From positions 186,001-250,000 of the forward strand of contig NZ_AUBG01000006.1 of NCBI RefSeq assembly GCF_000429125.1: DNA of 64,000 nucleotides, written 5' to 3'. Shown here in pieces: positions 9,239-57,509 of this stretch; the stretch's first letter is position 1, and every line of letters begins with the position of its first letter. The stretch comes from Aequorivita capsosiphonis DSM 23843. Its GTDB lineage: Bacteria > Bacteroidota > Bacteroidia > Flavobacteriales > Flavobacteriaceae. The notes beneath the pieces were generated by a model that saw only the letters and a list, made by a program, of their open reading frames with translations, had not been told where the DNA came from and made no database searches. The translations under genes and the position numbers were made by a program.

Positions 9239-9960
9239 TTTTTGAAACTGTATTTAAAAATCCAGGTTAGAATTTTTACGCCTGCAAATATAGCACCTTT
9301 TACTGTACCTGAAACTTTTGAAACACCAATCCGGTTTTTGTATTTCACTGGAATTTCGACATAGGTGAATTTCTTTTTGAGCACCTTCAGTTGCATCTCA
9401 ACCGTCCAACCGTAGGTTTTGTCTTCCATTTCTAAAGCCAGCAACTTTTCATATTTAATGGCGCGAAAAGGTCCTAAATCTGTGAATGTGGAATTAAAGA
9501 AAAGCTTCATCAGTTTGGTTGCTAGTCCGTTGCCAAAACGTTGTGGGAAACTCATGGAGCCTTTCTCGCTGAGTTCTTTCACTCGTGCTCCCACCACAAA
9601 ATCGATATTATCTTCAATAATAGGTGCGACGATTCTTGACAATTCTGTAGGATAATCGCTATAATCGCCATCTAGAAAAACAACAATATCCGGTCGTTGA
9701 GCGGAGCGTTGTGCTGAGCCTGTCGAAGTGTCGAAACGCGAAATGTGTTCCATTCCTTTTAAACACGCATATCCATAACCTGCATTGGGTTCAAAAAGTA
9801 CGGTAGCTCCGGCTGATTTCGCAACTTCCGCAGTATTATCGGAGGAATTGTTGTTCACCACAATTATTTCTGAAACTATATTTGGAATTTCAGCAATCAC
9901 CTTCCCAATCGCTTCTTCCTCATTATATGCGGGGATTATTACTTTTATATTTTGTTTCAT
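9235..9960 (-). CDS. GT2 glycosyltransferase, DPM1/polyprenyl-phosphate type, with repeat-derived insert
   Basis: 241 residues. N-terminal IIPAYNEEEAIG, the VVNNNSSDNT loop, NAGYGYACLKGM, and the DxD-like FLDGDYSDYP. The family transfers a sugar from a nucleotide donor to polyprenyl phosphate or another acceptor in the cytoplasm; no C-terminal membrane helices remain here, so it is soluble or peripheral. Residues ~75-89 (RFDTSTGSAQRSAQR) interrupt the otherwise conserved GM..I...KPDIVVFLDGDYSDYP stretch. They are encoded by a palindrome-bearing intergenic repeat. It overlaps the MORN-like gene upstream by 1 bp and the processive GT2 downstream by 4 bp. Confidence 0.85.
   Translation of the reverse strand: MKQNIKVIIPAYNEEEAIGKVIAEIPNIVSEIIVVNNNSSDNTAEVAKSAGATVLFEPNAGYGYACLKGMEHISRFDTSTGSAQRSAQRPDIVVFLDGDYSDYPTELSRIVAPIIEDNIDFVVGARVKELSEKGSMSFPQRFGNGLATKLMKLFFNSTFTDLGPFRAIKYEKLLALEMEDKTYGWTVEMQLKVLKKKFTYVEIPVKYKNRIGVSKVSGTVKGAIFAGVKILTWIFKYSFKK
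9694..9738 (-). repeat. Intragenic repeat copy (TTCGAC...GGCTCAGCAC...GCTCA) inside the GT2 gene
   Basis: 45 bp, i.e. 15 codons. On the minus strand it reads TTCGACACTTCGACAGGCTC and on, a form of the 'acttcgac..gctcag' repeat also found at 4161, 24090 and 57181. It encodes an insert in a conserved region. Confidence 0.7.
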
Positions 9961-10439
9961 TAAAAACTTGCATCTGGATTATCTTGTTTAAAGGCTGAAA
10001 TGCTAGTCCAAGTACCTGTCTTCAAGTCGTTTTTATATTTTTCGGCTCTTATCAAATTATTATTTTTATAGCATAAGGCATATCCATTTTTCTTATTGCT
10101 TTCGAATTGAATCTTAGATTTATAAGGAGTGCCAATTTCGTAAAAAATCCACCAATTCTCGGCACTTCCATTCACAAAATGTCCCTCTTTTTTAAGGTTA
10201 GCACCTTCGTCAAAGAAATACCAATAACCATTTTTTTTATTGTTTTTAAAAGGACCTTTTGAAGAAAGATTTGCGTTTTGGGTATAAAACTTCCAATATC
10301 CGGATTTATAATTGTTTACGAGCCAACCTTCTGATTTTATGATCCCGTTTTCATAATAGTTTTTTATGTATTGCTTGTTGTCTGAGGGGGCGTATATATT
10401 GGTGAAAATACTTAAAGCGAAAAATAGATAAATAGACAT
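9960..10439 (-). CDS. MORN-like repeat protein (YwqK-type)
   Basis: 159 residues. The N-terminus MSIYLFFALSIFTNIYA looks like a signal peptide. The rest consists of repeats of the form NGxxxxxGxxxNxxKxGxWxFY (for example YENGIIKSEGWLVNNYKSGY), typical of MORN/YwqK proteins. Many such proteins are labelled antitoxin of a toxin-antitoxin system, but no toxin partner is here. The position, first in a three-gene unit with two GT2 enzymes, suggests an envelope role. The stop overlaps the next start (TAATG). Confidence 0.65.
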   Translation of the reverse strand: MSIYLFFALSIFTNIYAPSDNKQYIKNYYENGIIKSEGWLVNNYKSGYWKFYTQNANLSSKGPFKNNKKNGYWYFFDEGANLKKEGHFVNGSAENWWIFYEIGTPYKSKIQFESNKKNGYALCYKNNNLIRAEKYKNDLKTGTWTSISAFKQDNPDASF

Positions 10440-10632
10440 GTATAGTATGCTAATGGTTAAGACGTGAATTTGTTAAATACTGACATTTAATCTGGCTGAA
10501 ATTCCTTCAGACTTTTTCTGCGTCATCTTATCTACGACTAAACTTGGAAGGAGGTTTTATTTACCGCTAATAAAACCACTCCTTTCTTTTCTGCGTAAAT
10601 GATGGTATAATCTTAAATTAAAACACTTAAAA

Positions 10633-11514
10633 ATGAAACTACCATCAAAATTATTAGCAATGCTTTGCTTGTTGACATCCTCGTTACTACTCGCGCAAAG
10701 CCCCGTAAGCGGGTTTATGAAAAAAAACAATGAGGGCTCTGTCGTTATTTCCTATTCTATGGAAAAATATGACAAGGTCTTTTTAGTGCCCCAAGAAGTA
10801 GATGGTGTACCCGTATTTAATGAAGTTACAAATACCAGTATCTCCCTTTATGGTGAATTTGGAATTACAGACAACTTGAACGTTGTATTTAATGTTCCCT
10901 ATATTAAATCTGAAGGAGAGGCTACCGAAGGAACGCTTGAATCTCTTGGATTCGAAAATACAAGAGAAGGAATTCAGGATTTAAGTCTGTATGTTAAGTA
11001 CAATTTTCACACCTTTAACTTAGGTAAGAGTGACTTAAGTTTTATTGGTTCTATAGGTCTCGAGACTCCTCTTAGTGATTATGAAGCCAATGAAGGGCTT
11101 CAGTCAATTATCGCGATTGGTAACCACGCCAGTAGTTTTAATGCTCTTGGGATCGCGATGTTTAAAACCGATTCTGGGTTTTTTACAACAGGACAAGTAG
11201 GATATAGCTTTAAAGACAGTGGCGCTCCCCATGCTTTCTTGAGTCAATTGAAGGTGGGATATGCCGCATCAAAATTTTATGTTGATGGCTACATTGCAAA
11301 CCAACTTTCTGAAAAAGATGGAGTAGATATTCTAGGCGAAGGTTTTACAGGTTATTTTCCTGCAACTCGTGTAAACTATACCCGTGTGGGTCTTAATGCG
11401 TTTGCACCCATTTTTGATGGCATAGGCATTTCAGCAGGTGCAAATACTTATATCGCTGGACGTAATCTTGGTAAATCCACTGGATTTTACGGCGGATTGG
11501 TCTATTCTTTCTAA
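10633..11514 (+). CDS. Outer-membrane beta-barrel protein (putative transporter/porin type)
   Basis: 293 residues. Signal peptide cleaved after LLLAQ. Alternating aromatic/hydrophobic strands throughout (SISLYGEFGI, NLNVVFNVPYIK, LYVKYNFHTF) and a C-terminal Phe (GGLVYSF) as in outer-membrane barrels. It resembles the family annotated as MetA-pathway-of-phenol-degradation-like transporters, but this is from pattern only. It lies 30 bp before a FAS1 lipoprotein on the same strand and probably shares its transcript. Confidence 0.65.
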   Translation: MKLPSKLLAMLCLLTSSLLLAQSPVSGFMKKNNEGSVVISYSMEKYDKVFLVPQEVDGVPVFNEVTNTSISLYGEFGITDNLNVVFNVPYIKSEGEATEGTLESLGFENTREGIQDLSLYVKYNFHTFNLGKSDLSFIGSIGLETPLSDYEANEGLQSIIAIGNHASSFNALGIAMFKTDSGFFTTGQVGYSFKDSGAPHAFLSQLKVGYAASKFYVDGYIANQLSEKDGVDILGEGFTGYFPATRVNYTRVGLNAFAPIFDGIGISAGANTYIAGRNLGKSTGFYGGLVYSF

Positions 11515-11544
11515 AAAAACATTAATATCCTAAAAAACACTAAT

Positions 11545-12540
11545 ATGAAAAATTTATATATAAAATCAGTAATGGCATTAGCCTTAATTTTCACATTTGG
11601 CGCTTGTGAAACCGAATCAAACTTCGAAGATTCAGCACCTTCAATATCATACATTGCAGTATCAAACCCAGCTTTCAGTGCATTAGAAGCGGCAGCTGTT
11701 TATGGTGGAGTAGCTGGAGTTTTGAGTAATAGCAATCCAAACGATCCTGATGGAAACTACACCGTTTTTGCTCCAAATAATGATGCTTTCGCCCGTTTGG
11801 GTCTAAATGAAGACAATCTTGGGGTTCTTCAACAGTCTTTTTTAACCAATACCTTGTTATATCACGTTTCCAATGGAAACTCTTTTGGTAGTTCTTTTGT
11901 AAACGGTTCTACTTCAACGTCTGCACTTAGTTTGGACAGAAGGTTTATAACTAGAGGAGGAGATACTTATATAAATGGGTCAAAAATATTGGCAACAGAT
12001 ATCAACGCTAGTAATGGTACAGTTCACGTTATTGATAAAGTAATGATAGCCACTGGAGGCGATATAGTACAATCTGCAATAGCACTACAAAGTGCACAGG
12101 TTTTTAAAGCACCAGAGTTGACTTTTCTCGTTGAAGCTGTTGTATATGCCGATTTGGTTGGTGCTTTAACTGCTTCAGAAGGAAGTCCTTCTTTTACTGT
12201 ATTTGCCCCAACGGATCAAGCTTTTAAAGATCTTGGAACCGCGCTTGGCTTGACTTTTACGCAACCAACAGATATTAGACAATTGCCAAAGGAGGTTGTT
12301 GCAACCGTATTATTGAATCATGTAATAGCCAATGGCGGTAAATTTACATCAGAACTTGATGCGGGTATACTAAGCCCATTGGGTGGAGATCCCTTAACAC
12401 TTGGAGCATATACTAACGGAACCTTAACCGTTACTGGAGTTGGAAACGGGAGTGCGGTAGCAAATATGGCGATTCCAGATGTACAGGCCACGAACGGCGT
12501 TATTCACGTTATTGATAGAGTTTTATTGCCCAATCTATAG
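11545..12540 (+). CDS. Lipoprotein with two fasciclin (FAS1) domains
   Basis: 331 residues. Lipobox FGAC (Cys21). Two FAS1 domains, roughly 35-170 and 180-330. Each has the YTVFAPNNDAF / FTVFAPTDQAF block and the closing (A)SNGTVHVIDKVM / TNGVIHVIDRVLLP block. FAS1 domains mediate adhesion or polysaccharide/protein binding at the surface. It is the likely second gene of a unit with the preceding barrel protein, and has the same architecture as the FAS1 protein at 57780. Confidence 0.9.
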   Translation: MKNLYIKSVMALALIFTFGACETESNFEDSAPSISYIAVSNPAFSALEAAAVYGGVAGVLSNSNPNDPDGNYTVFAPNNDAFARLGLNEDNLGVLQQSFLTNTLLYHVSNGNSFGSSFVNGSTSTSALSLDRRFITRGGDTYINGSKILATDINASNGTVHVIDKVMIATGGDIVQSAIALQSAQVFKAPELTFLVEAVVYADLVGALTASEGSPSFTVFAPTDQAFKDLGTALGLTFTQPTDIRQLPKEVVATVLLNHVIANGGKFTSELDAGILSPLGGDPLTLGAYTNGTLTVTGVGNGSAVANMAIPDVQATNGVIHVIDRVLLPNL

Positions 12541-12570
12541 TTGTTTCTTTTTTTGTTAATTGTTAGTTTA

Positions 12571-12611
12571 AACAGCACCTTGAGCCCCGCTCAACGGTGC
12601 TGTTTTATTTT
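12571..12611 (+). terminator. Rho-independent terminator after the FAS1 gene
   Basis: Long stem AACAGCACC-TTGAG / CTCAA-C-GGTGCTGTT with a CCCCG loop, followed by TTTTATTTTT. Located 30 bp after the stop codon. Confidence 0.9.
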
Positions 12612-13047
12612 TATATGTATTTCGTTTTGTTTGAAGAGAATCTTCAGTTCTAAAAATATTGTAACCTTCATCTCTTTAGAAAGCTAAAGTGTTATAAAAA
12701 TCATTTAGCCTACAATTTGGAACTTATTTTCAACTCAACCCCCACGACTTCTTTTACCTTAAAGTGAAGCTATCAAGAAATTTCATAATAGTGAAGGTTT
12801 TATGAATAGATAAGTTGAATAGTTTGAGTGGTAAGCTTGGAAACAGGAATCCGTGTACATTTGCGCATCAAATATTTTTCTAAAATGAAGAATGATTGAA
12901 GAGACCTTCTTGAAGAAAAGAGGATCTAGATTTGAGTGTCAATTTACTGTAAATCAGTGGTTTTATCTCTCGCAAAGTCGCAAAGCCGCAAAGTTATTTT
13001 TTATTTTTGACTACTGCTACTGCTACTGCTACTGCTACTGCTACTGG
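12612..13047. other. Gene-free stretch before the polyferredoxin gene
   Basis: No ORF of coding character. There is a promoter-like TTGG (12837) and TACATTTG (12856-12863) followed only by a 4-codon ATG..TGA, perhaps an orphan promoter of a lost gene. A (cgcaaag)-type tract lies at 12970-12993 and a ctactg array at 13011-13053. Confidence 0.5.
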
Positions 13048-13053
13048 CTACTG
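13011..13053. repeat. Period-6 tandem repeat (ctactg) running into the stop codon of the polyferredoxin gene
   Basis: About six ctactg units plus ggctactg. The stop (TAG, 13048-13050) and the last Gln codon of the minus-strand gene lie inside the array. Confidence 0.85.
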
Positions 13054-14634: not shown

Positions 14635-14659
14635 ATTTTTTATTGTTTAAGCCTAACAG

Positions 14660-14686
14660 ACGTCATTGCGAGGAACGAAGCAATCT
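14660..14686 (+). repeat. Widespread gtcattgcgaggaacgaag repeat
   Basis: The sequence gtcattgcgaggaacgaag followed by caatct sits between the two redox genes. I know this motif as an intergenic repeat in many unrelated bacteria. A single copy is in this window. Confidence 0.75.
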
Positions 14687-14699
14687 GAACTGTTATGTT

Positions 14700-18916: not shown

Positions 18917-18949
18917 AGACCTAACAGGTCTCAGAGACCTGTTAGGTCT
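18917..18949. repeat. Palindrome with 16-bp arms between convergent genes, containing the GT stop codon
   Basis: AGACCTAACAGGTCTC / GAGACCTGTTAGGTCT with a 1-base loop. The stop codon of the minus-strand TIGR04283-type gene (18942-18944) is inside it, so the last residues of that protein derive from the repeat. Related palindromes are at 19518 and 43190. Confidence 0.85.
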
Positions 18950-19721
18950 TTAAGACCTTTGGTGTTTTATTTCCAATGTATGTTTTATAATAAACGTACA
19001 ACTCCTCCGCATCCGCACCAAAAAATTTCTTTAAGTGAATCATCCAGAAATGATATTGTAATCTCCAAATTCCTAGTTCCCGATAGCGTCTTGCCGATGT
19101 AGTAAGCGAATGTGGAATTACAACGAATTTTTTTCGTTTATAAAGTTCACTGATCAAAATATTATCTTCGTAAATAACATAACTTTCATCAAAACCCCCA
19201 ACTTCTTCAAAAAGAGATTTCGTGATAAACTGGCTTTGATCGCCACCACGACAGCCTTGCCATTTAAATTTAGTTAGCCAACCTGCAAGTTGCAACCACC
19301 AATGATTACTGTCAAATTTCATTCGAAAACATCCGGCTGGATTTCCTTTTTCAACTTCGGAAACAATATAGCTGTCAAAATTTTTAGGAGGAAAAGAATC
19401 GGCGTGCAAAAAGTAGAGTATTTCTCCAGCCTGCCCGCCGTGGTACGAAGCTAATTTTGCACCAGCATTCATCTGTTTTGCACGTCCTTTGTTTGAAGCG
19501 ATAACTTGAATGTTAAAAGACCTGTCAGGTTTTTGAAACCTGACAGGTCTGGAAAACCTCTCGACGAAATTTTTAATCACTTCTTTTGTTTCATCAGTAC
19601 TTCCGCCATCTACAAGAATAACTTCTATATCATTATCTCCAGCACTGTTTTCTGAAAGATGGATTAATAGTTTTTCAATAGTTTCGGCTTCATTTAATAC
19701 CGGAATGATGATGGAAAGCAT
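18942..19721 (-). CDS. TIGR04283-type arsenosugar-cluster glycosyltransferase, with repeat-derived inserts
   Basis: 259 residues. GT2 start SIIIPVLNEAETI, VDGGSTDET (38-46), KGRAKQMN (78-85), LHADSFPP (DxD region), GGDQSQFI and the YEDNIL block are diagnostic of the TIGR04283 family. That family is tied to arsenosugar biosynthesis, though the acceptor is not proven. Two stretches look foreign: residues ~54-69 (palindrome coding RPVRFQKPDRS) before the conserved KGRAKQMN, and SYHGGQA (92-98) within A-x-GEILYFLHAD. The stop codon lies in a third repeat. All are in frame, so the gene is open. It is the last gene of the minus-strand cluster. Confidence 0.85.
   Translation of the reverse strand: MLSIIIPVLNEAETIEKLLIHLSENSAGDNDIEVILVDGGSTDETKEVIKNFVERFSRPVRFQKPDRSFNIQVIASNKGRAKQMNAGAKLASYHGGQAGEILYFLHADSFPPKNFDSYIVSEVEKGNPAGCFRMKFDSNHWWLQLAGWLTKFKWQGCRGGDQSQFITKSLFEEVGGFDESYVIYEDNILISELYKRKKFVVIPHSLTTSARRYRELGIWRLQYHFWMIHLKKFFGADAEELYVYYKTYIGNKTPKVLKT
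19426..19449 (-). repeat. Short in-frame repeat copy (CCTGCCCGCCG type) in the TIGR04283-type gene
   Basis: Encodes SYHGGQA between a conserved Ala and GEILYFLHAD. Similar G/C-rich cctgcc..ggcagg sequences occur at 29324, 39891, 44482 and 46108. Confidence 0.55.
19518..19550. repeat. Perfect 15-bp-arm palindrome inside the TIGR04283-type gene
   Basis: AGACCTGTCAGGTTT, ttg, AAACCTGACAGGTCT; 33 bp, i.e. 11 codons. The same palindrome family is intergenic at 43190-43221 and 18917-18949. Confidence 0.9.
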
Positions 19722-22531: not shown

Positions 22532-22866
22532 AATTTGTTTAGTTTTTTATTTTAATTATTACGTAGTCCAAAGAAAAGTAAGTCTCTCACTCGGGGCCGT
22601 GAAAGTTCACGAACTATATCTAACTTAAGTATTCTAACCTCCTCTTTATTAAAATGCCTTTTCTCTTTGCGTTCTCTGCGACTCAGCGGTGACTTTTTAC
22701 TGCAGAGACGCAGAGGCCGCAGAGCTTAAGAATTTTGAATTTAGTTAGATGATAGACTAAATCAATTTAAATTCTGAATATTTTTGTCCTACGTCCTACG
22801 TCCTACGTCCTACGTCCTACGTCCTACGTCCTACGTCTTACCGTCCTAAGTCATTTTTTCAACTAT
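22532..22866. other. Gene-free 335 bp with repeats
   Basis: No ORF. Contains a ctctgcgactcagcggtgac / gcagagacgcagaggccgca tract (22671-22727) and the gtcctac array. No clear promoter for punA was found. Confidence 0.6.
22786..22834. repeat. Period-7 tandem repeat (gtcctac)x7
   Basis: Seven exact units, then degenerate gtctta and gtcctaag. Degenerate single or double copies recur at 5733-5756 and 6149-6178. Confidence 0.95.
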
Positions 22867-24089: not shown

Positions 24090-24118
24090 AGAGTTTATCC
24101 TGAGCGGAGTGGAAGGAC
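24090..24118 (+). repeat. Intergenic repeat (tttatcctgagcggagtgga)
   Basis: Belongs to the 'cctgagc..gtcgaag' family seen at 4161, 9694 and 57181. It lies between the rhodanese and metallophosphoesterase-like genes. Confidence 0.55.
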
Positions 24119-38618: not shown

Positions 38619-39095
38619 TTAAAATACATACTTGAAAGCATAATATACCGCTACAAACTCTTCAATTGAAACAAGACCATTCATGCTAAAAAGAACGTCG
38701 CCACTGTAATTTGAATTGCCGTCATACACCTTTCCATCACTAATGGTCATTAAGATATCACCTGAATAGCTTGAATTTTTATTATACACCTTTCCATCCT
38801 TAATGTTCATTATGATGTCTCCCGAGTAATTGGAATTACCTTTATAAACCTTTCCTTTTGATATTGAAAATAGAATATCTCCGGAATAGTTTGAATTTTT
38901 TTTGTAGATTTTATTACCGGATATGCTACAAAGGATGTCTCCTGAATAATTTGAATTTTCCTTGTAAACTTTGCTATCCTTGATATTACAGATAATATCA
39001 CCGCTATAATTTGATGTTCCAGAAAATACTTTTACTTGAGATACGGATGCTTCAATACAGAAGAAAGTCAATGCAAATAGGAGGAGGAATTTCAT
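38619..39095 (-). CDS. Secreted protein of six ~20-residue NYSGD repeats
   Basis: 158 residues. Signal peptide (MKFLLLFALTFFCIEASVSQ), then about six tandem copies of a 20-residue unit (N-S-N-Y-S-G-D-I, then I, then K-V-Y-x-x). The C-terminus VSIEEFVAVYYAFKYVF is different. The units look like short beta hairpins, so a beta-solenoid or adhesin-like fold is likely. I know no named family. It overlaps the upstream GHMP kinase gene by 4 bp, though a shared role is not obvious. Confidence 0.75.
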   Translation of the reverse strand: MKFLLLFALTFFCIEASVSQVKVFSGTSNYSGDIICNIKDSKVYKENSNYSGDILCSISGNKIYKKNSNYSGDILFSISKGKVYKGNSNYSGDIIMNIKDGKVYNKNSSYSGDILMTISDGKVYDGNSNYSGDVLFSMNGLVSIEEFVAVYYAFKYVF

Positions 39096-40027
39096 TTTTT
39101 ATGAGTTTTAATCATTTCTTCAAATGAAATAATCGTTCCAAAGCCTTTTTTTCTGAAATATTCCTGGTCTCTTTCATTTCCCGTTGCCAAAATAAAATCG
39201 CCACCCCAAGCGCCCAAACTCTTTATGGTTCTTGGATAAACGCTAAAAAGTTGTTCTTTGATTGTGGGAAGACTTATAGTTTCTGAAATAATTGATTCGT
39301 GTAAATTCATCAACTTTTCAAACTCTGAAAGTGAATTACACGTCAAGAGATTATTGCTGATGTCTGAAATTCGTTGAATGGATTTTGCCTCTACCGAAGC
39401 ATTTCTGTACCTCGAAATCCCTTCTTTGCTATCCTGTTTTTGGTTTAAATGAACAAAAAATAAATGATCTGTAAAATCCCAGGGCAGAGCTACTTCTTTG
39501 AACGTGGATTTTTCATCTTTCAACTCATATAAAATAGGAGAATCATTTTGTGCAGCCGCAATATCGTAACCACTCCCGCCAAAACTCTTGATGAGTAATT
39601 TAAATGGATCTACTGCTGCCCATTGTGCAATATTGTTAATTAAGGTTGAAGAAGTACCTAAGCCCCAATTTCGAGGGAAATCTAGTTTTGTGATTACACT
39701 GATACCTTTTTCCTTGGAAAGAAAATCTGGATTCAGTTTTTTTGCTTCACGAATAATTTTTGAAAGCGTTTTTGAGATTGTATTTTCAGTATTTAGACTT
39801 TTTAAATTTTCTTGACAAAAAGTATCTTCAAACCAAACAACATCTTCTTCATCCAAACTTTTCCAGTGAATTTGTTTCTTTTCTGAATTTGTGCCTGCCG
39901 ACAGATAGGTGTTAACCTCCAAGGATTGTCCATATTTTGTGGGAATTGCAAGAGCTTCAGCTCCGTCAAGAACTACATATTCACCGGTAAGCAATAATTT
40001 CCCGTTGCTGTGGAATGTTTTTTTCAA
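39092..40027 (-). CDS. GYDIA-family GHMP kinase
   Basis: 311 residues from a TTG start (40025-40027); it precedes the conserved KLLLTGEYVVLDGA with a normal MKKTFHSNG N-terminus, and there is no in-frame ATG. WGLGTSSTLINNIA is the phosphate loop and GGSGYDIA the name-giving motif. GHMP fold kinases include mevalonate-pathway kinases; since HMG-CoA reductase is 500 bp away, an isoprenoid role is inferred. Residues around YLSAGT coincide with a small repeat (39891-39913). Confidence 0.8.
   Translation of the reverse strand: MKKTFHSNGKLLLTGEYVVLDGAEALAIPTKYGQSLEVNTYLSAGTNSEKKQIHWKSLDEEDVVWFEDTFCQENLKSLNTENTISKTLSKIIREAKKLNPDFLSKEKGISVITKLDFPRNWGLGTSSTLINNIAQWAAVDPFKLLIKSFGGSGYDIAAAQNDSPILYELKDEKSTFKEVALPWDFTDHLFFVHLNQKQDSKEGISRYRNASVEAKSIQRISDISNNLLTCNSLSEFEKLMNLHESIISETISLPTIKEQLFSVYPRTIKSLGAWGGDFILATGNERDQEYFRKKGFGTIISFEEMIKTHKK
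39891..39913 (-). repeat. Possible in-frame repeat copy (cctgccgacag) in the GHMP kinase gene
   Basis: gtgcctgccgacagataggt encodes YLSAGT in a variable loop near residue 43. It resembles the cctgcc..ggcagg family. This is weaker evidence than at 9694 or 19518. Confidence 0.4.
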
Positions 40028-43189: not shown

Positions 43190-43221
43190 AAACCTGACAG
43201 GTTTTAAAACCTGTCAGGTTT
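43190..43221. repeat. Perfect 32-bp palindrome in the trpB-trpA spacer
   Basis: AAACCTGACAGGTTTT followed by its exact reverse complement. Same family as 19518-19550 (inside a gene) and 18917-18949. Confidence 0.95.
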
Positions 43222-44472: not shown

Positions 44473-45126
44473 TTAAAAACCTTGTCCATCCGGCAGGCTG
44501 GCTTGCAGAATGTTCTGAAATTCCTTCAATACGGAAACATCCTTCAGACCCGGTTCAATTTCAAACTTGCTATTTACATCTATCGCATGAATTGGGAGTT
44601 CTGTTTTCAGCAATTCTTTTAACGAATCAACTTCTTCCATACCTATGCCACCGCTTAAGATGAATGGTTTTTTTAAGGTGTACTTTTTCAGAATCTCCCA
44701 GTTAAAGGTGAAACCATTTCCTCCTTTTTCTTTTCCTTTGGTGTCAAAGAGGAATTTGTCGACCTTATTTTCAAAAATTGATAGCTGATTAAAATCGAAA
44801 TAATCATCAAGGTTAAAAGCTTTCCATACCAATGTTTTTGAAAACACCAAATACCATTGTAAATCCAGTACATATTCCTTGCTTTCGTTGCCGTGAAGTT
44901 GGATAAAATCTAACGAATGCTTTTTAGTCAGCTCAATAACCCTTGAGATTTTTTCATCTACAAAAACGCCAACTTTTTTAACTCCGGGTGGAAGCGGCGG
45001 AATTTCTTCAGCATCAAAATATCTCGGACTTTTAGCATAAAAGATGAAGCCTAAATATTCTGGCTGAAGTTCGGCAACTTCGGCAATGTTGTGTTTCATT
45101 CCGCAGATTTTCAGTTTTATATCCAT
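44473..45126 (-). CDS. trpF: Phosphoribosylanthranilate isomerase, repeat-derived C-terminal tail
   Basis: 217 residues from the ATG at 45126 (an upstream in-frame start adds an atypical MPKTGWLITYYKIRK). LKICGMKHNIAEVAEL, YLGFIFYAKSPRYF, KVGVFVDE, LDFIQLHGNES, FLFDTKGKEKGGNGFTFNW, and PFILSGGIGMEE. The last residues, QASLPDGQGF, are encoded by ccggcaggctggct-type repeat DNA, so the end of the protein is repeat-derived. Confidence 0.9.
   Translation of the reverse strand: MDIKLKICGMKHNIAEVAELQPEYLGFIFYAKSPRYFDAEEIPPLPPGVKKVGVFVDEKISRVIELTKKHSLDFIQLHGNESKEYVLDLQWYLVFSKTLVWKAFNLDDYFDFNQLSIFENKVDKFLFDTKGKEKGGNGFTFNWEILKKYTLKKPFILSGGIGMEEVDSLKELLKTELPIHAIDVNSKFEIEPGLKDVSVLKEFQNILQASLPDGQGF
44482..44503 (-). 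repeat. Repeat forming the 3' end of trpF
   Basis: ttgtccatccggcaggctgg in the last ten codons, up to 7 bp from the stop codon. A relative is in the spacer at 46108. Confidence 0.6.
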
Positions 45127-48012: not shown

Positions 48013-49450
48013 AAATGGATTCCGCTAATTCCAGCGCTTTCGTTAGTGCGCCCAATTTATTATAAACTTCCTGCAATTCATTTTCTTCATTGCTTTCTGA
48101 AACCACACCAGCACCCGCTTGATAATGCAACGTATGGTTTTTGCTCACAAAGGATCGGATGATAATTGCGTGATTGAAATTGCCGTTGAAATCCATAAAA
48201 CCAATGGCGCCACCGTAAAATTCGCGACTTCTATTTTCATATTTTTCAAGTAATTGTAAAGCTTTATGTTTTGGTGCACCGCTTAAAGTTCCCGCAGGAA
48301 AGGTGTCTGCCACAATTTGCATCGTTGATATTTTTGGGTTCTTGATGGCGGTTACCTTACTTACTAAATGGATTACGTGCGAAAAAAATTGGATCTCCTT
48401 ATACGTTTCTACTGTTACGTTCGTCCCGTTTCGGCTTAGGTCATTTCGAGCTAAGTCTACTAACATCACGTGTTCACTGTTTTCTTTTACATCTTCGGCA
48501 AGTTTTTTAGCAAGCTCAGCATCTTCCTCGTCATTTCCCGTTCGCTTAAATGTTCCTGCAATGGGATGGATTTCTGCAAGCTCTCCTTTTACAACAAGTT
48601 GTGCTTCTGGAGAACTTCCGAAGATTTTAAAATTTCCATAATCAAAGTAGAAAAGATAAGGTGAAGGATTTACACTTCGTAAAGCTCTGTAAACATTGAA
48701 TTCATCGCCTTTAAACTTTTGAGAAAATCGTTTGCTGGGTACAATCTGAAAAACATCCCCACGCTGACAATGTTCTTTACATTTCCGAACTAAATCCTTA
48801 AAATCTTTGTCATTAAGATTGGTGGTTCGTTCGCCATCTCTTTTAAAAGGAAACTCAGCAAAGCTTTTCGATTTTAAAATTTGCTCAATTTGAGGAATGT
48901 TGTTTTCGGCGTCGTAACAATGTGCAAAAATGTAGGCCTCATTATTAAAATGATTTATCGCGATGATGTTTTGATAAACCGCATAATACAAATCGGGCAT
49001 TTCAAGGTTTTTCTCTTTTTTTGAGATTTCTATGTCTTCAAAATAACGCACGGCATCATAAGCCATATAACCGAAAAGGCCATTAATCCCCCCTTGGTCC
49101 CCCTTGGTCCCCTGCGGGGGGGAAGGACTTACTGGTTCAGAAGAAAATGAAGCTGCAAATTCACTCAAAAGATTCGGAACATTTGTGTCTGATTCAATTT
49201 CGATAACTGAACTCTTTCCATCAGGAAAGGTTTGTGTTATGATTTCATCTTGAACCTTTATAGATGCGATTGGGTTAAAGCAGATGTAACTAAAACTATT
49301 GTTGTTTGCGTGATAGTCGCTGCTTTCTAATAAAAGACTGTTCGGGAATTTATCGCGAAGCCGCAAATAGACTGACACAGGAGTGAGTGTGTCGGCTAAT
49401 AGCTTTTTTGAGTTCGTTTTTAGCGAATATTTTTTATTATTTATTTTCAT
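48011..49450 (-). CDS. trpE: Anthranilate synthase component I, with repeat-derived insert
   Basis: 479 residues. NGLFGYMAYDAVRYFE, FQIVPSKRFSQKF, YLFYFDYGNFKIFGSSPEAQLV, HPIAGTFKRTG (chorismate site), HVMLVDLARNDLSR and AGTLSGAPKHKAL. Residues ~107-122 (VSPSPPQGTKGDQGGI) replace what should be a short linker before NGLFGYMAYDA. They are read from a ccccttggtcc repeat in frame. The N-terminal LLESSDYHANNNSFSYICF contains the Trp feedback-type region. First structural gene of the operon. Confidence 0.93.
   Translation of the reverse strand: MKINNKKYSLKTNSKKLLADTLTPVSVYLRLRDKFPNSLLLESSDYHANNNSFSYICFNPIASIKVQDEIITQTFPDGKSSVIEIESDTNVPNLLSEFAASFSSEPVSPSPPQGTKGDQGGINGLFGYMAYDAVRYFEDIEISKKEKNLEMPDLYYAVYQNIIAINHFNNEAYIFAHCYDAENNIPQIEQILKSKSFAEFPFKRDGERTTNLNDKDFKDLVRKCKEHCQRGDVFQIVPSKRFSQKFKGDEFNVYRALRSVNPSPYLFYFDYGNFKIFGSSPEAQLVVKGELAEIHPIAGTFKRTGNDEEDAELAKKLAEDVKENSEHVMLVDLARNDLSRNGTNVTVETYKEIQFFSHVIHLVSKVTAIKNPKISTMQIVADTFPAGTLSGAPKHKALQLLEKYENRSREFYGGAIGFMDFNGNFNHAIIIRSFVSKNHTLHYQAGAGVVSESNEENELQEVYNKLGALTKALELAESI
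49086..49128 (-). repeat. In-frame ccccttggt repeat copy in trpE
   Basis: Two exact tccccccttgg-like units plus cctgcgggggggaa. The related ccccttt/agggg form is intergenic at 4209 and 41892. Confidence 0.8.
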
Positions 49451-49499
49451 TTTTCACTAACTTATTGAATTGATCTCTAATTTCGATAGGGCACAAAAA

Positions 49500-49529
49500 A
49501 AAAGGCTTGTCGTGAATGACAAGCCTTTT
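49500..49529 (-). terminator. Attenuator terminator upstream of trpE
   Basis: Minus strand stem AAAAGGCTTGTC / GACAAGCCTTTT with a 6-base loop, followed by nine T. It sits 30 bp after the leader-peptide stop and 50 bp before trpE. Confidence 0.9.
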
Positions 49530-49559
49530 CGTATATAATTTATACCATAGGTGTTCAGC

Positions 49560-49616
49560 TCACGATGTTTGCCGTAAGTTTCTCCACCACCAAGTATTTG
49601 TTGTAATTGTGTTCAT
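49560..49616 (-). CDS. trp operon leader peptide with three Trp codons
   Basis: 18 residues, MNTITTNTWWWRNLRQTS, with TGG TGG TGG at 49584-49592. Followed by stop TGA, then an intrinsic terminator. This is the layout of a trp attenuation leader. No Shine-Dalgarno is seen. The promoter element TATCTTTG (49628-49635) would start RNA close to the ATG. Confidence 0.85.
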   Translation of the reverse strand: MNTITTNTWWWRNLRQTS

Positions 49617-49627
49617 TGTTTGAACTT

Positions 49628-49635
49628 CAAAGATA
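49628..49635 (-). promoter_or_regulatory. Putative -7 element TATCTTTG of the trp operon
   Basis: Exact TAnnTTTG on the minus strand, 11 bases before the leader ATG. A -33 box is not clear in the AT-rich sequence upstream. Confidence 0.6.
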
Positions 49636-49728
49636 GAAAGGTTTTTTAAAAAATAACGATAGTCTGATATTTTTTTTGAAATTTACATACACTTTGTTGA
49701 TATTGATTAGTTTTACAAAAAAAACAAA

Positions 49729-50040: not shown

Positions 50041-50053
50041 AAACAAATCAACA

Positions 50054-50955: not shown

Positions 50956-51017
50956 AAAATAACTTACGGTTGTTGCAAAGGGAATTTTTCATCAAATTTT
51001 AAGCTATTAACCTTAGT

Positions 51018-51509: not shown

Positions 51510-51658
51510 GATTTTTGAAGGTTGTGTTAGAACTTAAAACTTACAATTCCGTCATCTTGAAATCTTTTATAGAAAATTAAAAATTCAATTTTTTAGGAAT
51601 TGTGTTTTCTAAAACTAATTTACCCATTTAAAAGTATTTTTCTCCCATAAAATTCCTT

Positions 51659-51666
51659 TAAATTTG
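51659..51666 (+). promoter_or_regulatory. Putative -7 element TAAATTTG of ctlX
   Basis: Exact TAnnTTTG 19 bases before the TTG start of ctlX. No clear -33 box. Confidence 0.5.
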
Positions 51667-51685
51667 CAGCCTAAAATTTTCTACA

Positions 51686-52618
51686 TTGGCAAAACAAATC
51701 ACAAATACTATCTTAATGATCCGCCCAGTTGCGTTTAGAATGAACGAACAAACGGCAGTCAACAATTTTTTTCAGGAAGAAATAGCGCTTAAAAATGCTG
51801 AAGTAAATAGCCAGGCGCAGGCAGAATTTGATGCTTTTGTGGAAAAGCTGCGTGCTGTTGGGGTAAACGTGATTGTGGAGAATGACGATGTAAAGATGGA
51901 TACGCCAGATTCTATTTTTCCGAACAACTGGATTAGTTTTCACGCAAATGGCGATATTGGTTTATACCCTATGTTTGCTGAAAATCGCCGTCGAGAAAGA
52001 CGGGAAGATATTTTAATCCGCTTGGAAAAAGAAGGATTTATAATTAGAAATGTCTACGACTATACATCTGCCGAAGATGAAGGTATTTTCTTGGAAGGTA
52101 CGGGTAATTTATTGTTGGACCGTGTAAACAAAAAGGCATATTGCGCACTTTCACCCAGAGCACACGAAGAGCTGTTAATTGAGTTTTGTGAAGATTTTGA
52201 CTACATGCCGGTAATCTTTACTGCGAACCAAACAGTAGACAGCAAACGCGTGCCAATCTATCATACTAATGTAATGATGTGCCTTGCGGAAGAATTCTGC
52301 GTTATTTGTTTAGACACCATAGACGATGCCGCCGAAAAGAAAAACCTTGTCAAGCACCTAAAAGAAGATAAAAAACAGATCATTAAAATAACTGAAGCGC
52401 AGATGCATCATTTTGCGGGCAATATGCTTCAGGTTCAAGGGAAGGATAAAAAATATTTAGTGATGAGTACCGCTGCACACAAAAGTTTGGATCAAAATCA
52501 GATTTCAGAAATTGAAAAACACTGCGAAATAATGAGTAGCGATCTTACAACCATTGAAACCTGTGGTGGTGGAAGTGCACGCTGTATGATGGCCGAAGTA
52601 TTTCTTCCCAAGGAATAG
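51686..52618 (+). CDS. ctlX: Citrulline utilization hydrolase CtlX-like
   Basis: 310 residues from a TTG start (MAKQITNTILMIRPVAF). Arginine-deiminase fold: SIFPNNWISFHANGDIGLYPM, EGIFLEGTGNLLLDR, VPIYHTNVMMCL and CGGGSARCMMAEVFLP (nucleophile Cys). CtlX is a guanidine/ureido hydrolase. The substrate (citrulline, arginine or other) cannot be told. Confidence 0.8.
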   Translation: MAKQITNTILMIRPVAFRMNEQTAVNNFFQEEIALKNAEVNSQAQAEFDAFVEKLRAVGVNVIVENDDVKMDTPDSIFPNNWISFHANGDIGLYPMFAENRRRERREDILIRLEKEGFIIRNVYDYTSAEDEGIFLEGTGNLLLDRVNKKAYCALSPRAHEELLIEFCEDFDYMPVIFTANQTVDSKRVPIYHTNVMMCLAEEFCVICLDTIDDAAEKKNLVKHLKEDKKQIIKITEAQMHHFAGNMLQVQGKDKKYLVMSTAAHKSLDQNQISEIEKHCEIMSSDLTTIETCGGGSARCMMAEVFLPKE

Positions 52619-52621
52619 TTT

Positions 52622-54055
52622 TTAAGAAACCTCTTCAATTTTACTGATATTTCGAATCATTCCACCAAAAATAAAATAGTGGAAGGGGAGCATGGTGTAC
52701 CAATATAAACGCCCCCATATTCCTTTGGGTCTAAAGGTTGCTGTTTGTATAAGTTCATTTTTCTCATTGATACAGAATTCTAGCCAAGCTTCGCCAGGAA
52801 GTTTCATTTCAGCAAAGAGTAATAGTCTTTTATTTTCTTTATCGGCGTAAAGTACGCGCCAAAAATCTAAAGCATCGCCAGTATAAATCTGATTGGGATT
52901 TGTACGTCCGCGTCGCAAACCAACTCCGCCAACAATCTTATCCATAAATCCACGTAATTTCCAAAGTGTATTTCCATAATACCAGCCTTTTTTGCCTCCA
53001 ATAGCCCAGATATTGTCCAAGACTTTTTCAGGGTTTTCCACCTTTAAAATCTTTCTATCTTTTAAGCATCCGTATTTTGGCACTTGGATGTATTCTTTTA
53101 AATTAGTTATTCTACCAGCGACCAGGGAGTCTTTCCAACTTGAAACCACCAGATTTTGTTCAATTTTTACAAAGGCTTTTCTGATGGCTTCTTCGTAGGT
53201 AATTGGTTGGATGCCCAATATTTTCTGAAGTTTATTGTCCTTTGCCACAACTTCCATTTTCATGCTGTCCACTAAATTTACAGCTAGTTTATATGAAGTT
53301 GAGGTTACAAAATACAACCAATAGGATGAAAGTCTTGGTGACATAACAGGAACCGAGATGATCCAAAGTTTTAATCCGCGAATTTTAGAGTATTGCTGCA
53401 ACATTTCTTTATAGGTCAAAACGCAGGGGCCGCCGATATCAAAAGATTGGTCAAAACATTTTTCATTGTTTAATACTCCATATAAAAAGGAGATAACATC
53501 GCGAATGGCGATGGGTTGTATTCTAGTTTTTAACCAAGATGGTGCTACCATTAAAGGCAATTTTTCACAAAGATCTCTGATTATTTCAAAGGATGAACTT
53601 CCGCTACCCACAACAATTCCGGCTCTAAGAACTGTAACTTTATAATTACCTTGGTATAAAATTTCTTCTACTTTTTTTCGGGAAGAAAGGTGTTTTGATA
53701 GTTGTTCCTGATTTACAATTCCACTTAAATAAATAACCTGCTTTACGGAAGTTGTTGCCATATATTTATTGAAATTTTCTGCGGCACGTGCTTCTATTTC
53801 ATCAAAATCGGTAGTAGAACCGCTCATAGAATGGATCAGATAATAAGCGGCATCAATATCTTTAGGAAATGATTCCGTATTTACTTCCTTTGCGAAATCT
53901 ACTTCCACAACAGAAACTTTTGAAGTTGTTTCGGGATCTAATGGCAGTCTATTTTTATCGCGGACGGCACAAATAACGTGATGCCCGTTTTCTAGAAGTT
54001 CGGGTAACAATCTCATGCCAATGTATCCGTTGGCGCCTGTAAGTAAAATTTTCAA
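52622..54055 (-). CDS. SDR-type epimerase with C-terminal DUF2867
   Basis: 477 residues. Rossmann TGANGYIGMRLLPEL (7-21), then VIYLSGIVNQ, KVTVLRAGIVVGSGSSSFE and IGGPCVLTYKEML. A C-terminal half with DFWRVLYADKENKRLLLFAEMKLPGEAWLEF matches DUF2867. Likely NAD(P)-dependent reductase/epimerase acting on a sugar or isoprenoid-like substrate; function not certain. Confidence 0.8.
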   Translation of the reverse strand: MKILLTGANGYIGMRLLPELLENGHHVICAVRDKNRLPLDPETTSKVSVVEVDFAKEVNTESFPKDIDAAYYLIHSMSGSTTDFDEIEARAAENFNKYMATTSVKQVIYLSGIVNQEQLSKHLSSRKKVEEILYQGNYKVTVLRAGIVVGSGSSSFEIIRDLCEKLPLMVAPSWLKTRIQPIAIRDVISFLYGVLNNEKCFDQSFDIGGPCVLTYKEMLQQYSKIRGLKLWIISVPVMSPRLSSYWLYFVTSTSYKLAVNLVDSMKMEVVAKDNKLQKILGIQPITYEEAIRKAFVKIEQNLVVSSWKDSLVAGRITNLKEYIQVPKYGCLKDRKILKVENPEKVLDNIWAIGGKKGWYYGNTLWKLRGFMDKIVGGVGLRRGRTNPNQIYTGDALDFWRVLYADKENKRLLLFAEMKLPGEAWLEFCINEKNELIQTATFRPKGIWGRLYWYTMLPFHYFIFGGMIRNISKIEEVS

Positions 54056-54180
54056 TGGAGTTTATTTTGTTTAAAGATAGGTGATAATAGTTGAACAGAA
54101 GTTAAAAAGCCGTTAACTTCCTACGCGCAGTAATTAGTAAAGACCTATCTTTAAGAATTCAACCAAATAAATCGATTTCT

Positions 54181-54387
54181 ATGAAAATTTTAAAAATAGT
54201 ACTCCTTATCGCTGGGGTAGTTTTAATAATTTTTGGACTCTATAATGCCTTTGTTCCACAGACAGTTGTTGACATTGGGCCTTTAGAAGTCAATGCAAAA
54301 GAAGGCTTAAACAATCAAACCTTAGGAATGATTGGGATTGGTATTTTGGCACTTCTTGGCGGCGCTCTTCTTAAAAATAGGCGCTAA
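54181..54387 (+). CDS. Small two-helix membrane protein
   Basis: 68 residues. TM1 ILKIVLLIAGVVLIIFGLYN, a periplasmic loop, TM2 MIGIGILALLGGALL and a basic end. No known family. It ends 4 bp before the convergent marC-like gene. Confidence 0.65.
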   Translation: MKILKIVLLIAGVVLIIFGLYNAFVPQTVVDIGPLEVNAKEGLNNQTLGMIGIGILALLGGALLKNRR

Positions 54388-54390
54388 ATT

Positions 54391-55023
54391 TTAAGCATTT
54401 ATCGTTTTAAGAATAGAAATCACGGCGGCACTTATATACTCCACGCCTATAGATATCACGATAAACCCAACAATTCGAGAAATAGCATTAATGCCAGAAG
54501 CACCTAAAAATTTGCTGATGTAATGAGAGCTTCTCAATATAATAAACGTAGCCAGACCTACTGCCAAAACGGCTAAGATTACCGTCAACATATCATTCCA
54601 TTTTTGATATTCTTGATTAAAGCTTATCAATAATGAAATTGAACCAGGTCCGGCAAGCATTGGAATGGCTAGTGGTGTGAGTGAAAATCTTTCCCGCTTG
54701 TCCAAATCTTTTTGAACCCGTTTGTTCTTCATTCCTTTGTGTTTTGAAAAAGTTCCTGTGAGCAAAGCAAAGCCCGAAGTAACGATTATCATTCCGCCTG
54801 CAATCCGTAGCGCGTTTAAACTTATACCGAAGAAGGCCAACAAATACGTGCCGGCAAAGAAGGAAATAATTAGAATGACGACCACGTTTATCGTGGTGAA
54901 AAGTGAAGTTTTGTTGCGCTCCTTTACACTTTCTTCACTGGTAAGGCCTACAAATACGGGTACAGTTCCCAAAGGATTTATAACTGAAAATAGTGCCGCA
55001 AAAACATATAAAAAAATATCCAT
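54391..55023 (-). CDS. MarC family membrane protein
   Basis: 210 residues, six predicted helices. FSVINPLGTVPVFVGLT, LRIAGGMIIVTSGFALL, LTPLAIPMLAGPGSISLLISF and ISRIVGFIVISIGVEYI match MarC. Family function is uncertain (once linked to antibiotic resistance). Confidence 0.9.
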   Translation of the reverse strand: MDIFLYVFAALFSVINPLGTVPVFVGLTSEESVKERNKTSLFTTINVVVILIISFFAGTYLLAFFGISLNALRIAGGMIIVTSGFALLTGTFSKHKGMKNKRVQKDLDKRERFSLTPLAIPMLAGPGSISLLISFNQEYQKWNDMLTVILAVLAVGLATFIILRSSHYISKFLGASGINAISRIVGFIVISIGVEYISAAVISILKTINA

Positions 55024-55102
55024 CGTTTTTTTGGCAAAGAACGTATGGTTTTTCTATTTGAAGTTTACTGAATTGTTATGATAAGATTAAAGTTGCGGTA
55101 AG

Positions 55103-55534
55103 TTATTGGTCTTCCCAACGATCAGGTGTGGCGTGGTTTTTCGCGGCCACTAATTTTTTCATAAAAGCGTGAACACTTTTATCTGATGGATGCACTTTTA
55201 TCTTAAAGAAATAATTGTCCTTATATATAGCATATTCCTCTGTCTTCCCCTTGTATAGCACTAATTTATAATAGGGGATAATTAATGCGTATGAGTTTAA
55301 TTTACTTCGGAAACCAACAATAATGCCTTTAGGTCGCATTTCGATATTGCAGACGTTTCGATTATTGTCCAAATTCATTAGGTTACTTATTTGAAGACTC
55401 GTCTCACTTAAAATGAGTTTTGGCGAACCTATTCCGCCCATTTTAAATCTTTCCATTAGTGGAAAAGATTTGCCAAGTTCATTATCTATTTTGCGAGTTA
55501 CTTCGCTGTCCTTGTAGGAAACATTTAAAAGCAT
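55103..55534 (-). CDS. Hypothetical protein
   Basis: 143 residues, cytoplasmic. Contains ISNLMNLDNNRNVCNIEMRP and YALIIPYYKLVLYKGKTEEY. It may be a flavobacterial conserved protein near argS. No named domain that I recognise. Confidence 0.7.
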   Translation of the reverse strand: MLLNVSYKDSEVTRKIDNELGKSFPLMERFKMGGIGSPKLILSETSLQISNLMNLDNNRNVCNIEMRPKGIIVGFRSKLNSYALIIPYYKLVLYKGKTEEYAIYKDNYFFKIKVHPSDKSVHAFMKKLVAAKNHATPDRWEDQ

Positions 55535-55586
55535 TTTTTTACTTTAAAGATAGTGGTTTCTGAAATACTTAAAATTTAAAAACGTG

Positions 55587-55594
55587 TATCTTTG
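55587..55594 (+). promoter_or_regulatory. Putative -7 element TATCTTTG of argS
   Basis: Exact TAnnTTTG, implying a ~95-nt untranslated leader before argS. The leader contains a weak AACTCC / GGAGTT stem (55602-55627) and a degenerate tatct iteration (55657-55692). Confidence 0.55.
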
Positions 55595-55697
55595 TCCCCA
55601 AACTCCGAAGCCTCAGCAAAGGAGTTCATTTATTAAAAGAATTTATTGAGAGGATTTCTAATATCTCAAGTCTCATATCTAATATCTATTTAAAAAG

Positions 55698-57509
55698 ATG
55701 AATTTTCAGCAAAAAATAGAATCCGAAATTAAGAAAGCAGTTTCAGCCATTTACATTGCTACTTTGGAAACGGTCGAACTACAACCAACCCGCAAGGATT
55801 TTGAAGGTGATATTACCGCCGTTGTTTTTCCTATGTTGCGCGTGGTGAAAGGGAATCCGGTGCAAATTGGTGAAGCTATTGGAAACTATTTGGTTGAAAA
55901 TGTTGAGGAGATTGAAAAATTCAACGTGGTTCAAGGTTTTTTGAATATGGTGTTGAGTGATTCGTATTATTTAAACTTTTTTAATTCGGTAGAAGATTTT
56001 TCTTCCTTCGGAAAAGTGCCGCAGGGAAAAGAAGCTTTAATGGTTGAATACTCTTCGCCAAACACAAACAAACCTTTGCATTTAGGGCACGTTCGAAATG
56101 TTTTACTGGGCTATTCGGTTGCTGAAATTGAAAAGGCCGCGGGTAAAAAAGTGTATAAAACGCAAATTATAAACGACCGGGGAATTCATATTTGTAAAAG
56201 TATGCTGGCTTGGGAAAAATTTGGAAATGGCGAAACTCCCGATACCGCAAATTTAAAAGGCGATAAGCTGGTTGGGAATTATTACGTAAGATTTGACCAA
56301 GAATACAAAAAGGAAATTGAGACTTTAAAAGCTGAAGGTAAAACCGAAGAAGAAGCAAAAGCGCAAGCAGCATTAATTTTGGAAGCACAGGAAATGCTTC
56401 GAAAATGGGAAGCTGGTGATGAAGAAACCGTTGCGCTTTGGAAGAGAATGAATACTTGGGTTTACAAAGGTTTTGAGGAAACATATAAATCCATTGGCGT
56501 AGATTTCGACTTTTATTATTACGAAAGCGATACCTATCTTTTAGGAAAAGATATTATTGAAGAAGGCATAAAAAACGATGTTTTCTTTATGAAAGACGAT
56601 GGCTCGGTTTGGTGCGATTTAACCGAAGATGGCCTCGACGAAAAACTTGTTTTGCGAAGCGACGGAACTGCGGTTTATATGACGCAGGATCTTGGAACCG
56701 CAGTACAGCGTGTAAAAGATCATCCCGACGTTGGCGGAATGATTTACACCGTTGGAAACGAACAAGATTATCACTTTAAAGTCTTGTTTTTAATTCTGAA
56801 AAAACTAGGCTATACTTGGGCTGAAAACCTATTTCACTTAAGTTATGGAATGGTAGATCTCCCTTCTGGAAAAATGAAAAGCCGTGAAGGAACCGTTGTA
56901 GATGCAGATGATTTAATAGCACAAATGACGGCGACTGCGCGCGATATTTCCGAAGAACTTGGAAAGATTGACGATTTTTCAGATGAAGAAAAAGACGAAC
57001 TCTATAAAATTATTGGGTTAGGTGCGTTGAAATATTATATCCTAAAAGTAGACCCTAAAAAACGAATTCTTTTCAACCCCGAAGAAAGTGTAGATTTTCA
57101 AGGAAACACGGGTCCTTTTATTCAATATACATATGCACGGATTCAATCTATTTTAAGAAAAGTCGCTGATGTCAGGTTAAGCACTTCGACTGCGCTCAGT
57201 ACAAGCTCCGTCGAAACCTCATTCAACGACGAAATCGAAATGCATCCAAAAGAAAAAGAACTGATTAAAATTATCCAGCAATACCCTGAAATTATTCAGT
57301 TGGCAGCGGCTAATTACAGTCCAGCATTGGTTGCAAATTATACGTATGATTTGGTAAAAGAATTCAATAGCTTCTATCAAAACGTACCAATTCTTGCTAC
57401 AGATAATGAAACCGAAAAAGCATTCCGTGTAAAACTTTCTGGCGCGGTGGCTTCAATTATTAAAAGTGCTTTTGCCTTGTTGGGGATTGAAGTTCCGGAA
57501 CGAATGTAG
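55698..57509 (+). CDS. argS: Arginyl-tRNA synthetase, with repeat-derived insert
   Basis: 603 residues. YSSPNTNKPLHLGHVRN (HIGH-type), TQIINDRGIHICKSML, GMVDLPSGKMKSREGTVVDADDL (KMSK-type), FQGNTGPFIQYTYARIQSILRK, and the C-terminal FNSFYQNVPIL and SGAVASIIKSAFALLGIEVPERM. Residues ~494-507 (LSTSTALSTSSVET) break the run IQSILRKVADVR...MHPKEKELI and are encoded by the acttcgactgcgctcagtac repeat. The insert is in frame. Confidence 0.97.
   Translation: MNFQQKIESEIKKAVSAIYIATLETVELQPTRKDFEGDITAVVFPMLRVVKGNPVQIGEAIGNYLVENVEEIEKFNVVQGFLNMVLSDSYYLNFFNSVEDFSSFGKVPQGKEALMVEYSSPNTNKPLHLGHVRNVLLGYSVAEIEKAAGKKVYKTQIINDRGIHICKSMLAWEKFGNGETPDTANLKGDKLVGNYYVRFDQEYKKEIETLKAEGKTEEEAKAQAALILEAQEMLRKWEAGDEETVALWKRMNTWVYKGFEETYKSIGVDFDFYYYESDTYLLGKDIIEEGIKNDVFFMKDDGSVWCDLTEDGLDEKLVLRSDGTAVYMTQDLGTAVQRVKDHPDVGGMIYTVGNEQDYHFKVLFLILKKLGYTWAENLFHLSYGMVDLPSGKMKSREGTVVDADDLIAQMTATARDISEELGKIDDFSDEEKDELYKIIGLGALKYYILKVDPKKRILFNPEESVDFQGNTGPFIQYTYARIQSILRKVADVRLSTSTALSTSSVETSFNDEIEMHPKEKELIKIIQQYPEIIQLAAANYSPALVANYTYDLVKEFNSFYQNVPILATDNETEKAFRVKLSGAVASIIKSAFALLGIEVPERM
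57181..57218 (+). repeat. In-frame copy of the acttcgactgcgctcag repeat in argS
   Basis: gcacttcgactgcgctcagt (57181-57200) and the arm ccgtcgaaac (57208-57217). Encodes a Ser/Thr-rich insert. Opposite orientation to 4161 and 9694. Confidence 0.85.

What the first reader, a model, noticed from the sequence alone, without database searches (positions are those of the whole stretch)
9694..57218. Intergenic repeat families inserted in frame inside conserved genes (RPE-like behaviour in a flavobacterium)
Seen: palindromic or low-complexity DNA that elsewhere in the window lies between genes is found inside open, conserved genes as short inserts: GT2 (9694-9738, 15 codons), TIGR04283-type GT (19426-19449 and 19518-19550, the latter an 11-codon perfect palindrome), trpE (49086-49128), argS (57181-57218), possibly the GHMP kinase (39891-39913), and the trpF C-terminus (44482-44503). 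In each clear case the insert sits in a spot where homologues, as I know them, have a shorter or uninterrupted loop. Copies of different families (CTTCGAC..GCTCAG; AACCTGTCAGGTT; ccccttggt; cctgcc..ggcagg) do the same, so this is a property of the genome, not of one element. Established analogy: Rickettsia palindromic elements code inserts in many genes. I know of no such description for this phylum, but I cannot check.
Basis: partly seen in the sequence, partly recalled or inferred. Interest (0 to 1): 0.78.

Follow-up and report, generated by a model that had tools for sequence, protein, structure and literature searches.

The report
REP-like palindromes inside conserved genes
Tiny repeated DNA palindromes that mostly sit between genes in the marine bacterium Aequorivita are also found in frame inside conserved enzyme genes, with different palindromes at the same protein loops in different species; such in-gene repeats are known from other bacteria, so this is a variant of a known kind.

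Summary
The window is Aequorivita (Flavobacteriaceae). Six of the seven reported places hold short in-frame inserts absent from all or nearly all relatives compared: GT2, two in the TIGR04283 glycosyltransferase, trpE, argS and (family assignment weak) the GHMP kinase. The trpF place is a C-terminal tail, not an insert. The best-studied family (A) is a hairpin of about 25 nt with compensated stem changes and TGTC at its foot in 27 of 29 distinct copies of one subfamily. Its core is in 28 of 28 Aequorivita genomes. In the window's genome 5 of 16 exact copies lie clearly inside genes; other copies lie in mfd, pdhC and, in relatives, metG, hutU and trpF. Different families or opposite orientations occupy the same loop in different species; in GT2 and argS a 24-nt copy appears nested in an older one. 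Intragenic REPs (including Rickettsia RPE-4/6) and CGTC REPs in the flavobacterium Gramella forsetii are already described (PMC3733652). The mover is unknown: Y1 transposase number does not track copy number. Against a strong claim: copies are depleted in genes, exact GC-rich hairpins are not enriched in genes, and 11 of 20 insert sites show no repeat or folding signal.

The parts
9694..9738 (-). composite family-A insert in the GT2 gene (9235-9960)
9706..9729 (-). 24-nt family-A copy lying between two halves of what looks like an older family-A remnant (9694-9705 and 9730-9738); boundaries inferred by comparison with G019
   Evidence: G019 locus L064 lacks the 24 nt
19426..19449 (-). GC-rich insert (peptide YHGGQA) in the TIGR04283 glycosyltransferase, shared with G015 only
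19518..19550 (-). 33-nt family-B palindrome in the TIGR04283 gene, at a loop that holds other elements in other species
39891..39913 (-). 7-codon insert in the GYDIA-family GHMP kinase; family-D-like, repeat membership weak
44482..44503 (-). family-D-like sequence forming the TrpF C-terminal tail (not an internal insert)
49086..49128 (-). family-C insert in the N-terminal domain of trpE
57170..57219 (+). composite family-A insert in argS: halves of an older A(+) remnant, with TGTC at 57170-57173
57183..57206 (+). 24-nt family-A copy in the opposite orientation between those halves; boundaries inferred by comparison with G015
18917..18949 (.). palindrome of the B2 type between genes, overlapping the 3' end of the TIGR04283 gene
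43190..43221 (.). intergenic family-B palindrome
24100..24115 (+). intergenic family-A copy (1 mismatch to the core)
4166..4181 (+). intergenic family-A copy (1 mismatch to the core)

Best explanation
Aequorivita genomes carry several families of short REP-like palindromes. Family A is a hairpin of about 25 nt: TGTC tag, outer stem of 4-5 bp, a conserved GA on each side of the stem, short loop. Copies arrive in the genome; most that fall in genes are lost. Those that keep the frame, bring no stop codon and fall in disordered or surface loops persist as part of the protein and later decay or receive another copy. Shown: the inserts, their family relationships, the tag, the stem compensation, different elements at the same loops, and depletion in genes. 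Inferred: that the copies arrived by mobilisation, that retention reflects tolerance, and the nested order in GT2 and argS. The mobilising enzyme is not identified; a trans-acting HUH-type (Y1) enzyme that reads the hairpin foot is my first guess for it (about 0.35).
For: Inserts absent in relatives. 8 against 0, 0, 0 in shuffled controls. Structural family-A scan: 19 hits in 1.85 Mb coding against 1, 5, 3, 7 and 9 codon-shuffled; 34 in 0.32 Mb intergenic against 0-1. Two outer stem pairs Watson-Crick in 20 of 23 copies each against means of 9.0 and 9.8 when shuffled. In a 20-nt subfamily with 188 matches, 147 of the 150 listed places are compensated at the one pair the pattern leaves free. 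TGTC in 27 of 29 distinct contexts (25 of 27 rows, one copy counted twice there). ArgS residues 494-507, which hold the insert, have pLDDT below 50 between two helices; three other segments of the model are also below 50. A solved Mfd (6x26) lacks 17 residues that include the copy in Aequorivita Mfd. Core in 28 of 28 genomes of the genus, reversed control 0.
Against: No enzyme is linked: Y1_Tnp number and family-A number are uncorrelated over 28 genomes (rho 0.10, p 0.60), the 9 genomes without Y1 hits still carry copies, and a family-A or near-A copy was near 2 of the 12 Y1 loci looked at. Two species pairs gave 6 indels, one with a family-A copy, and no clear target duplication. Exact GC-rich hairpins are not enriched in genes. 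11 of 20 insert sites show neither signal. The own genome has 0 exact matches to the 20-nt subfamily.
Confidence: 0.78

Rival explanations
1. The palindromes are made on the spot by replication or repair errors (template switching at quasi-palindromes) and are not mobile.
For: Families B, C and E are perfect or near-perfect palindromes; no 12-mer reached high copy in 864 kb; no transposase is linked; hairpins in genes are at the shuffled level.
Against: One 20-nt family-A sequence type recurs 188 times in 26 of 28 genomes with a fixed TGTC tag, which local errors would not give. This does not exclude the rival for families B-E.
Confidence: 0.15
2. The loops were colonised once, long ago; the differences between species come from in-place inversion, decay and allele exchange rather than repeated arrivals.
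For: argS of G011 against G015 and G008, and trpF of G007 against G018 and G011, carry the same family-A sequence in opposite orientation at the same loop. The argS loop of G023 matches that of G018, G020 and G021 against the tree.
Against: These subfamilies are common (188 matches), so two arrivals are plausible; the TIGR04283 loop holds families A, B/B2 and an E-like hairpin in different species.
Confidence: 0.25
3. In-gene copies are kept because the mRNA hairpin or the peptide is useful.
For: The argS copy keeps the core in four species.
Against: Copies sit in unrelated genes, in several frames and both orientations, and are missing from most relatives.
Confidence: 0.08

Closest known systems
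CGTC-tagged REPs (Di Nocera et al. 2013, PMC3733652; named sections read)
   Same: short hairpin with CGTC or TGTC at its foot, mostly intergenic, also inside genes, reported in Bacteroidetes and named for G. forsetii, not flanking tyrosine transposase genes
   Different: family A has GA on each side of the stem and lacks the AT pairs in first and second position described as almost invariable; different REPs at about the same site are noted there for recB of two Xanthomonas species
Rickettsia palindromic elements (RPE)
   Same: in-frame coding palindromes in unrelated housekeeping genes; RPE-4/6 are counted as intragenic REPs in PMC3733652
   Different: RPE-1 is longer (recalled, about 100-150 nt); the inserts here are about 18-45 nt; no RPE sequence was compared
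GTAG REPs with RAYT/TnpAREP transposases (PMC6006769, passages seen)
   Same: tetranucleotide just 5' of the hairpin foot, similar size
   Different: tag is TGTC; family A was not found beside most Y1 loci looked at (2 of 12)
Small dispersed repeats of cyanobacteria (recalled, not looked up)
   Same: very small repeats, some said to lie inside genes
   Different: not compared here

Membership tests
CGTC REP superfamily | CGTC tag (often TGTC or CCTC) at one end of the hairpin | tested here: met
   TGTC at the same position in 27 of 29 distinct subfamily contexts
[quoted passage not shown]
   first base A in 15 of 29, second pair G-C by the pattern searched; GA on each side of the stem
CGTC REP superfamily | loop of 4-5 nt and a CCA-like tail | tested here: inconclusive
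   loop length depends on how the GA bases are counted; tails mostly TTT, TCT, TAT
CGTC REP superfamily | not associated with tyrosine transposase genes | tested here: met
   A or near-A copy near 2 of 12 Y1 loci; rho 0.10
CGTC REP superfamily | head-to-head dimers predominant, clusters rare | not tested
   same-strand clusters are visible in the listings but were not analysed
GTAG REP / RAYT system | GTAG tag and flanking of a RAYT gene | tested here: not met
   tag TGTC
Intragenic REPs (behaviour) | member of a mostly intergenic repeat family in frame inside a conserved gene | tested here: met
   5 of 16 exact copies in genes, 1 at an uncertain N-terminus, 10 outside; gene identities
Rickettsia RPE | sequence membership in an RPE family | not testable with these tools
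   no RPE consensus was at hand; the figures of PMC3733652 are not held

The most novel reading that the evidence does not exclude
Certain loops of conserved enzymes in Bacteroidota are continuing landing sites: a resident hairpin attracts further copies into its own loop (the 24-nt nested copies in GT2 and argS) or flips in place, so that REPs without a transposase drive rapid turnover of linkers in housekeeping proteins.
Probability: 0.15. Interest if true: 0.75.

Novelty: new variant of a known kind. Interest (0 to 1): 0.5.

Why it matters
How REPs without a dedicated transposase move is open. Conserved genes give aligned flanks, so in-gene copies in a genus with 28 genomes at hand offer filled and empty sites, orientations and nestings that intergenic copies do not. 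It also points to a source of lineage-specific loops in enzymes such as ArgS, MetG, Mfd, TrpE and TrpF, and warns that such peptides may be repeat-derived rather than adaptive.

Tried and rejected
Exact 12-mer over-representation in 864 kb found no high-copy identical family. Exact-hairpin enrichment in genes: none. A coding-against-intergenic BLAST timed out; the next was swamped by AT-rich chance and gene-fragment matches and its printout was cut, so one search used GC-rich matches. Two species pairs gave 6 indels and no clear target duplication. Y1/RAYT as the mover: no correlation, flanking in 2 of 12 loci. Rfam found a tRNA and a trp leader in the window. A 25-nt family-A sequence had 0 exact matches in viral contigs.

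Rows left out or special: a 108-residue difference in G005 was listed in the first and cut by the length limit in the second; a 7-residue indel shared by seven species was counted as one of the 20 sites and has no signal; one search took one representative per site (20 of 38 rows). Of the 20 loci made, one search counted 16 (3 in genes); one search looked at the other four, so 4 of 20 pass the in-gene score, two of them orthologous (L308, L315); L318 lies in a long frame but under the score. The score is conservative: it called outside a copy known to lie in the TIGR04283 gene of G011. The TIGR04283 families were assigned by eye, 3 of 28 loci had no anchor; 11 of 80 argS loci had no anchor.

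Searches for earlier descriptions; six exact element strings were in 0 papers, which says little because figures and supplements are not searched. Seen of papers: PMC3733652 abstract, section 4 part 1, sections 15 and 16, section 17 part 1 and passages; PMC6006769 and PMC12306157 passages; all others listings only.

Full report
What was checked. Each named gene was compared with orthologues in up to 27 other genomes of the genus.

Inserts. GT2 has a loop of 23 residues against 13-20 in 26 relatives. ArgS has 29 against 17-28 in 26 relatives. TrpE has an insert near residue 113, absent as such from 16 aligned relatives; G001, G008 and G023 have other inserts close to the same place, and G003, G006, G008 and G023 have inserts about 30 residues earlier, three of them the same family-C sequence type. 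The TIGR04283 enzyme has two inserts, one shared with G015 only. The GHMP kinase has seven residues missing from 13 of 13 others. The trpF place is a C-terminal tail; but an internal TrpF loop carries family A in G007, G011, G018, G020 and G021 and a decayed form in G001, 6 of 17 genomes aligned.

What the elements are. Family A reads TGTC, one base, outer stem, GAG...CGA, outer stem. Among 23 distinct exact copies in 2.31 Mb the two outer pairs are Watson-Crick in 20 of 23 each, against means of 9.0 and 9.8 when shuffled; these rows include orthologous argS copies of related species. A 20-nt subfamily has 188 exact matches in 26 of 28 genomes, none in the window's own; 147 of the 150 places listed are compensated at the pair left free. 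TGTC stands at the foot in 27 of 29 distinct contexts. The exact core occurs 4 to 58 times in each of 28 genomes with a reversed control of 0. In the phylum 155 of 296 genomes have at least one match, but many have only one or two, no better than the reversed control, which reaches 4; the highest count is 214. Families B to E are other palindromes for which no tag was tested.

Genes and intergenic DNA. All 16 exact family-A copies of the own genome were placed: 5 inside genes (GT2, argS, an LD-carboxypeptidase, and two that appear to lie in one GH92 gene), 1 at an uncertain N-terminus, 10 outside. Coding DNA is about 83% of the sample, so copies are depleted in genes. Further matches supported by several intergenic loci lie in mfd and in a pyruvate dehydrogenase E2 gene. 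An ATTGCGAG-type match lies in a gene resembling the methylmalonyl-CoA mutase small subunit, supported by two intergenic loci only; a solved homologue shows no net insertion there. In relatives, metG (G006, and the same peptide in G014) and hutU (G008) carry family A; a solved urocanase (6uek) is five residues shorter at that place, and a solved Mfd (6x26) 17 residues shorter at the Mfd copy. Of 20 subfamily loci, one per genome, 4 pass the in-gene score.

Different elements at the same loop. The TIGR04283 loop holds family B in G000 and G022, a B2 form in G002, G010, G023 and G026, family A in one orientation in G011 and G017 and in the other in G007, an A-like sequence in G004, an E-like hairpin in G015, and none in several others (by eye). 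The ArgS loop also carries family A in a Winogradskyella (L164) and, with one mismatch, in another Flavobacteriaceae record (L217). The simplest reason is tolerance: ArgS residues 494-507 have pLDDT below 50 between two helices. For argS and trpF, two arrivals and in-place inversion cannot be told apart. In GT2 and argS the relatives suggest a 24-nt copy inside an older one; boundaries and order are inferred.

Mechanism. In PMC3733652 (section 16) CGTC REPs are not associated with transposase genes. Here 19 of 28 genomes have Y1_Tnp matches, but their number does not track family A (rho 0.10, p 0.60) and 2 of 12 Y1 loci have a family-A or near-A copy. The position of the tag resembles the guide tetranucleotide 5' of the hairpin foot described for TnpAREP (PMC6006769, passages); that is the reason for guessing a HUH enzyme in trans, with low confidence.

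Results against. Exact hairpins in genes equal the shuffled count. 11 of 20 insert sites have no signal on either test. Several of the 19 structural hits in coding DNA must be chance, since shuffled sets give 1 to 9. No clean empty/filled pair was found.

Known or new. Intragenic REPs and CGTC REPs of Bacteroidetes are in print (PMC3733652). What is added here is a genus-wide comparison in which different palindromes occupy the same loops of conserved enzymes. I file it as a new variant of a known kind and do not place family A in the four published CGTC families, because the stem feature was tested and not met.

Noticed in passing
window 49518-49636 (-): Bacteroid-trp leader RNA (RF01692) upstream of trpE
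   Followed up: no
window 22786-22852: 7-nt GTCCTAC tandem array, with related pieces near 5735 and 6151
   Followed up: no
window 38711-38979: 60-nt tandem repeats inside the gene 38619-39095
   Followed up: no
G008:C1:116037-118199: three Y1_Tnp matches in a row with the same score
   Followed up: no
argS of G023 and of G018, G020, G021: nearly the same loop sequence although G023 groups elsewhere on the tree, suggesting exchange of argS
   Followed up: partly
trpF across the genus: two trpF types: the type with VDFC or ADFC carries family A, intact or decayed, in 6 of 6 members seen, the other type in 0 of 11
   Followed up: no
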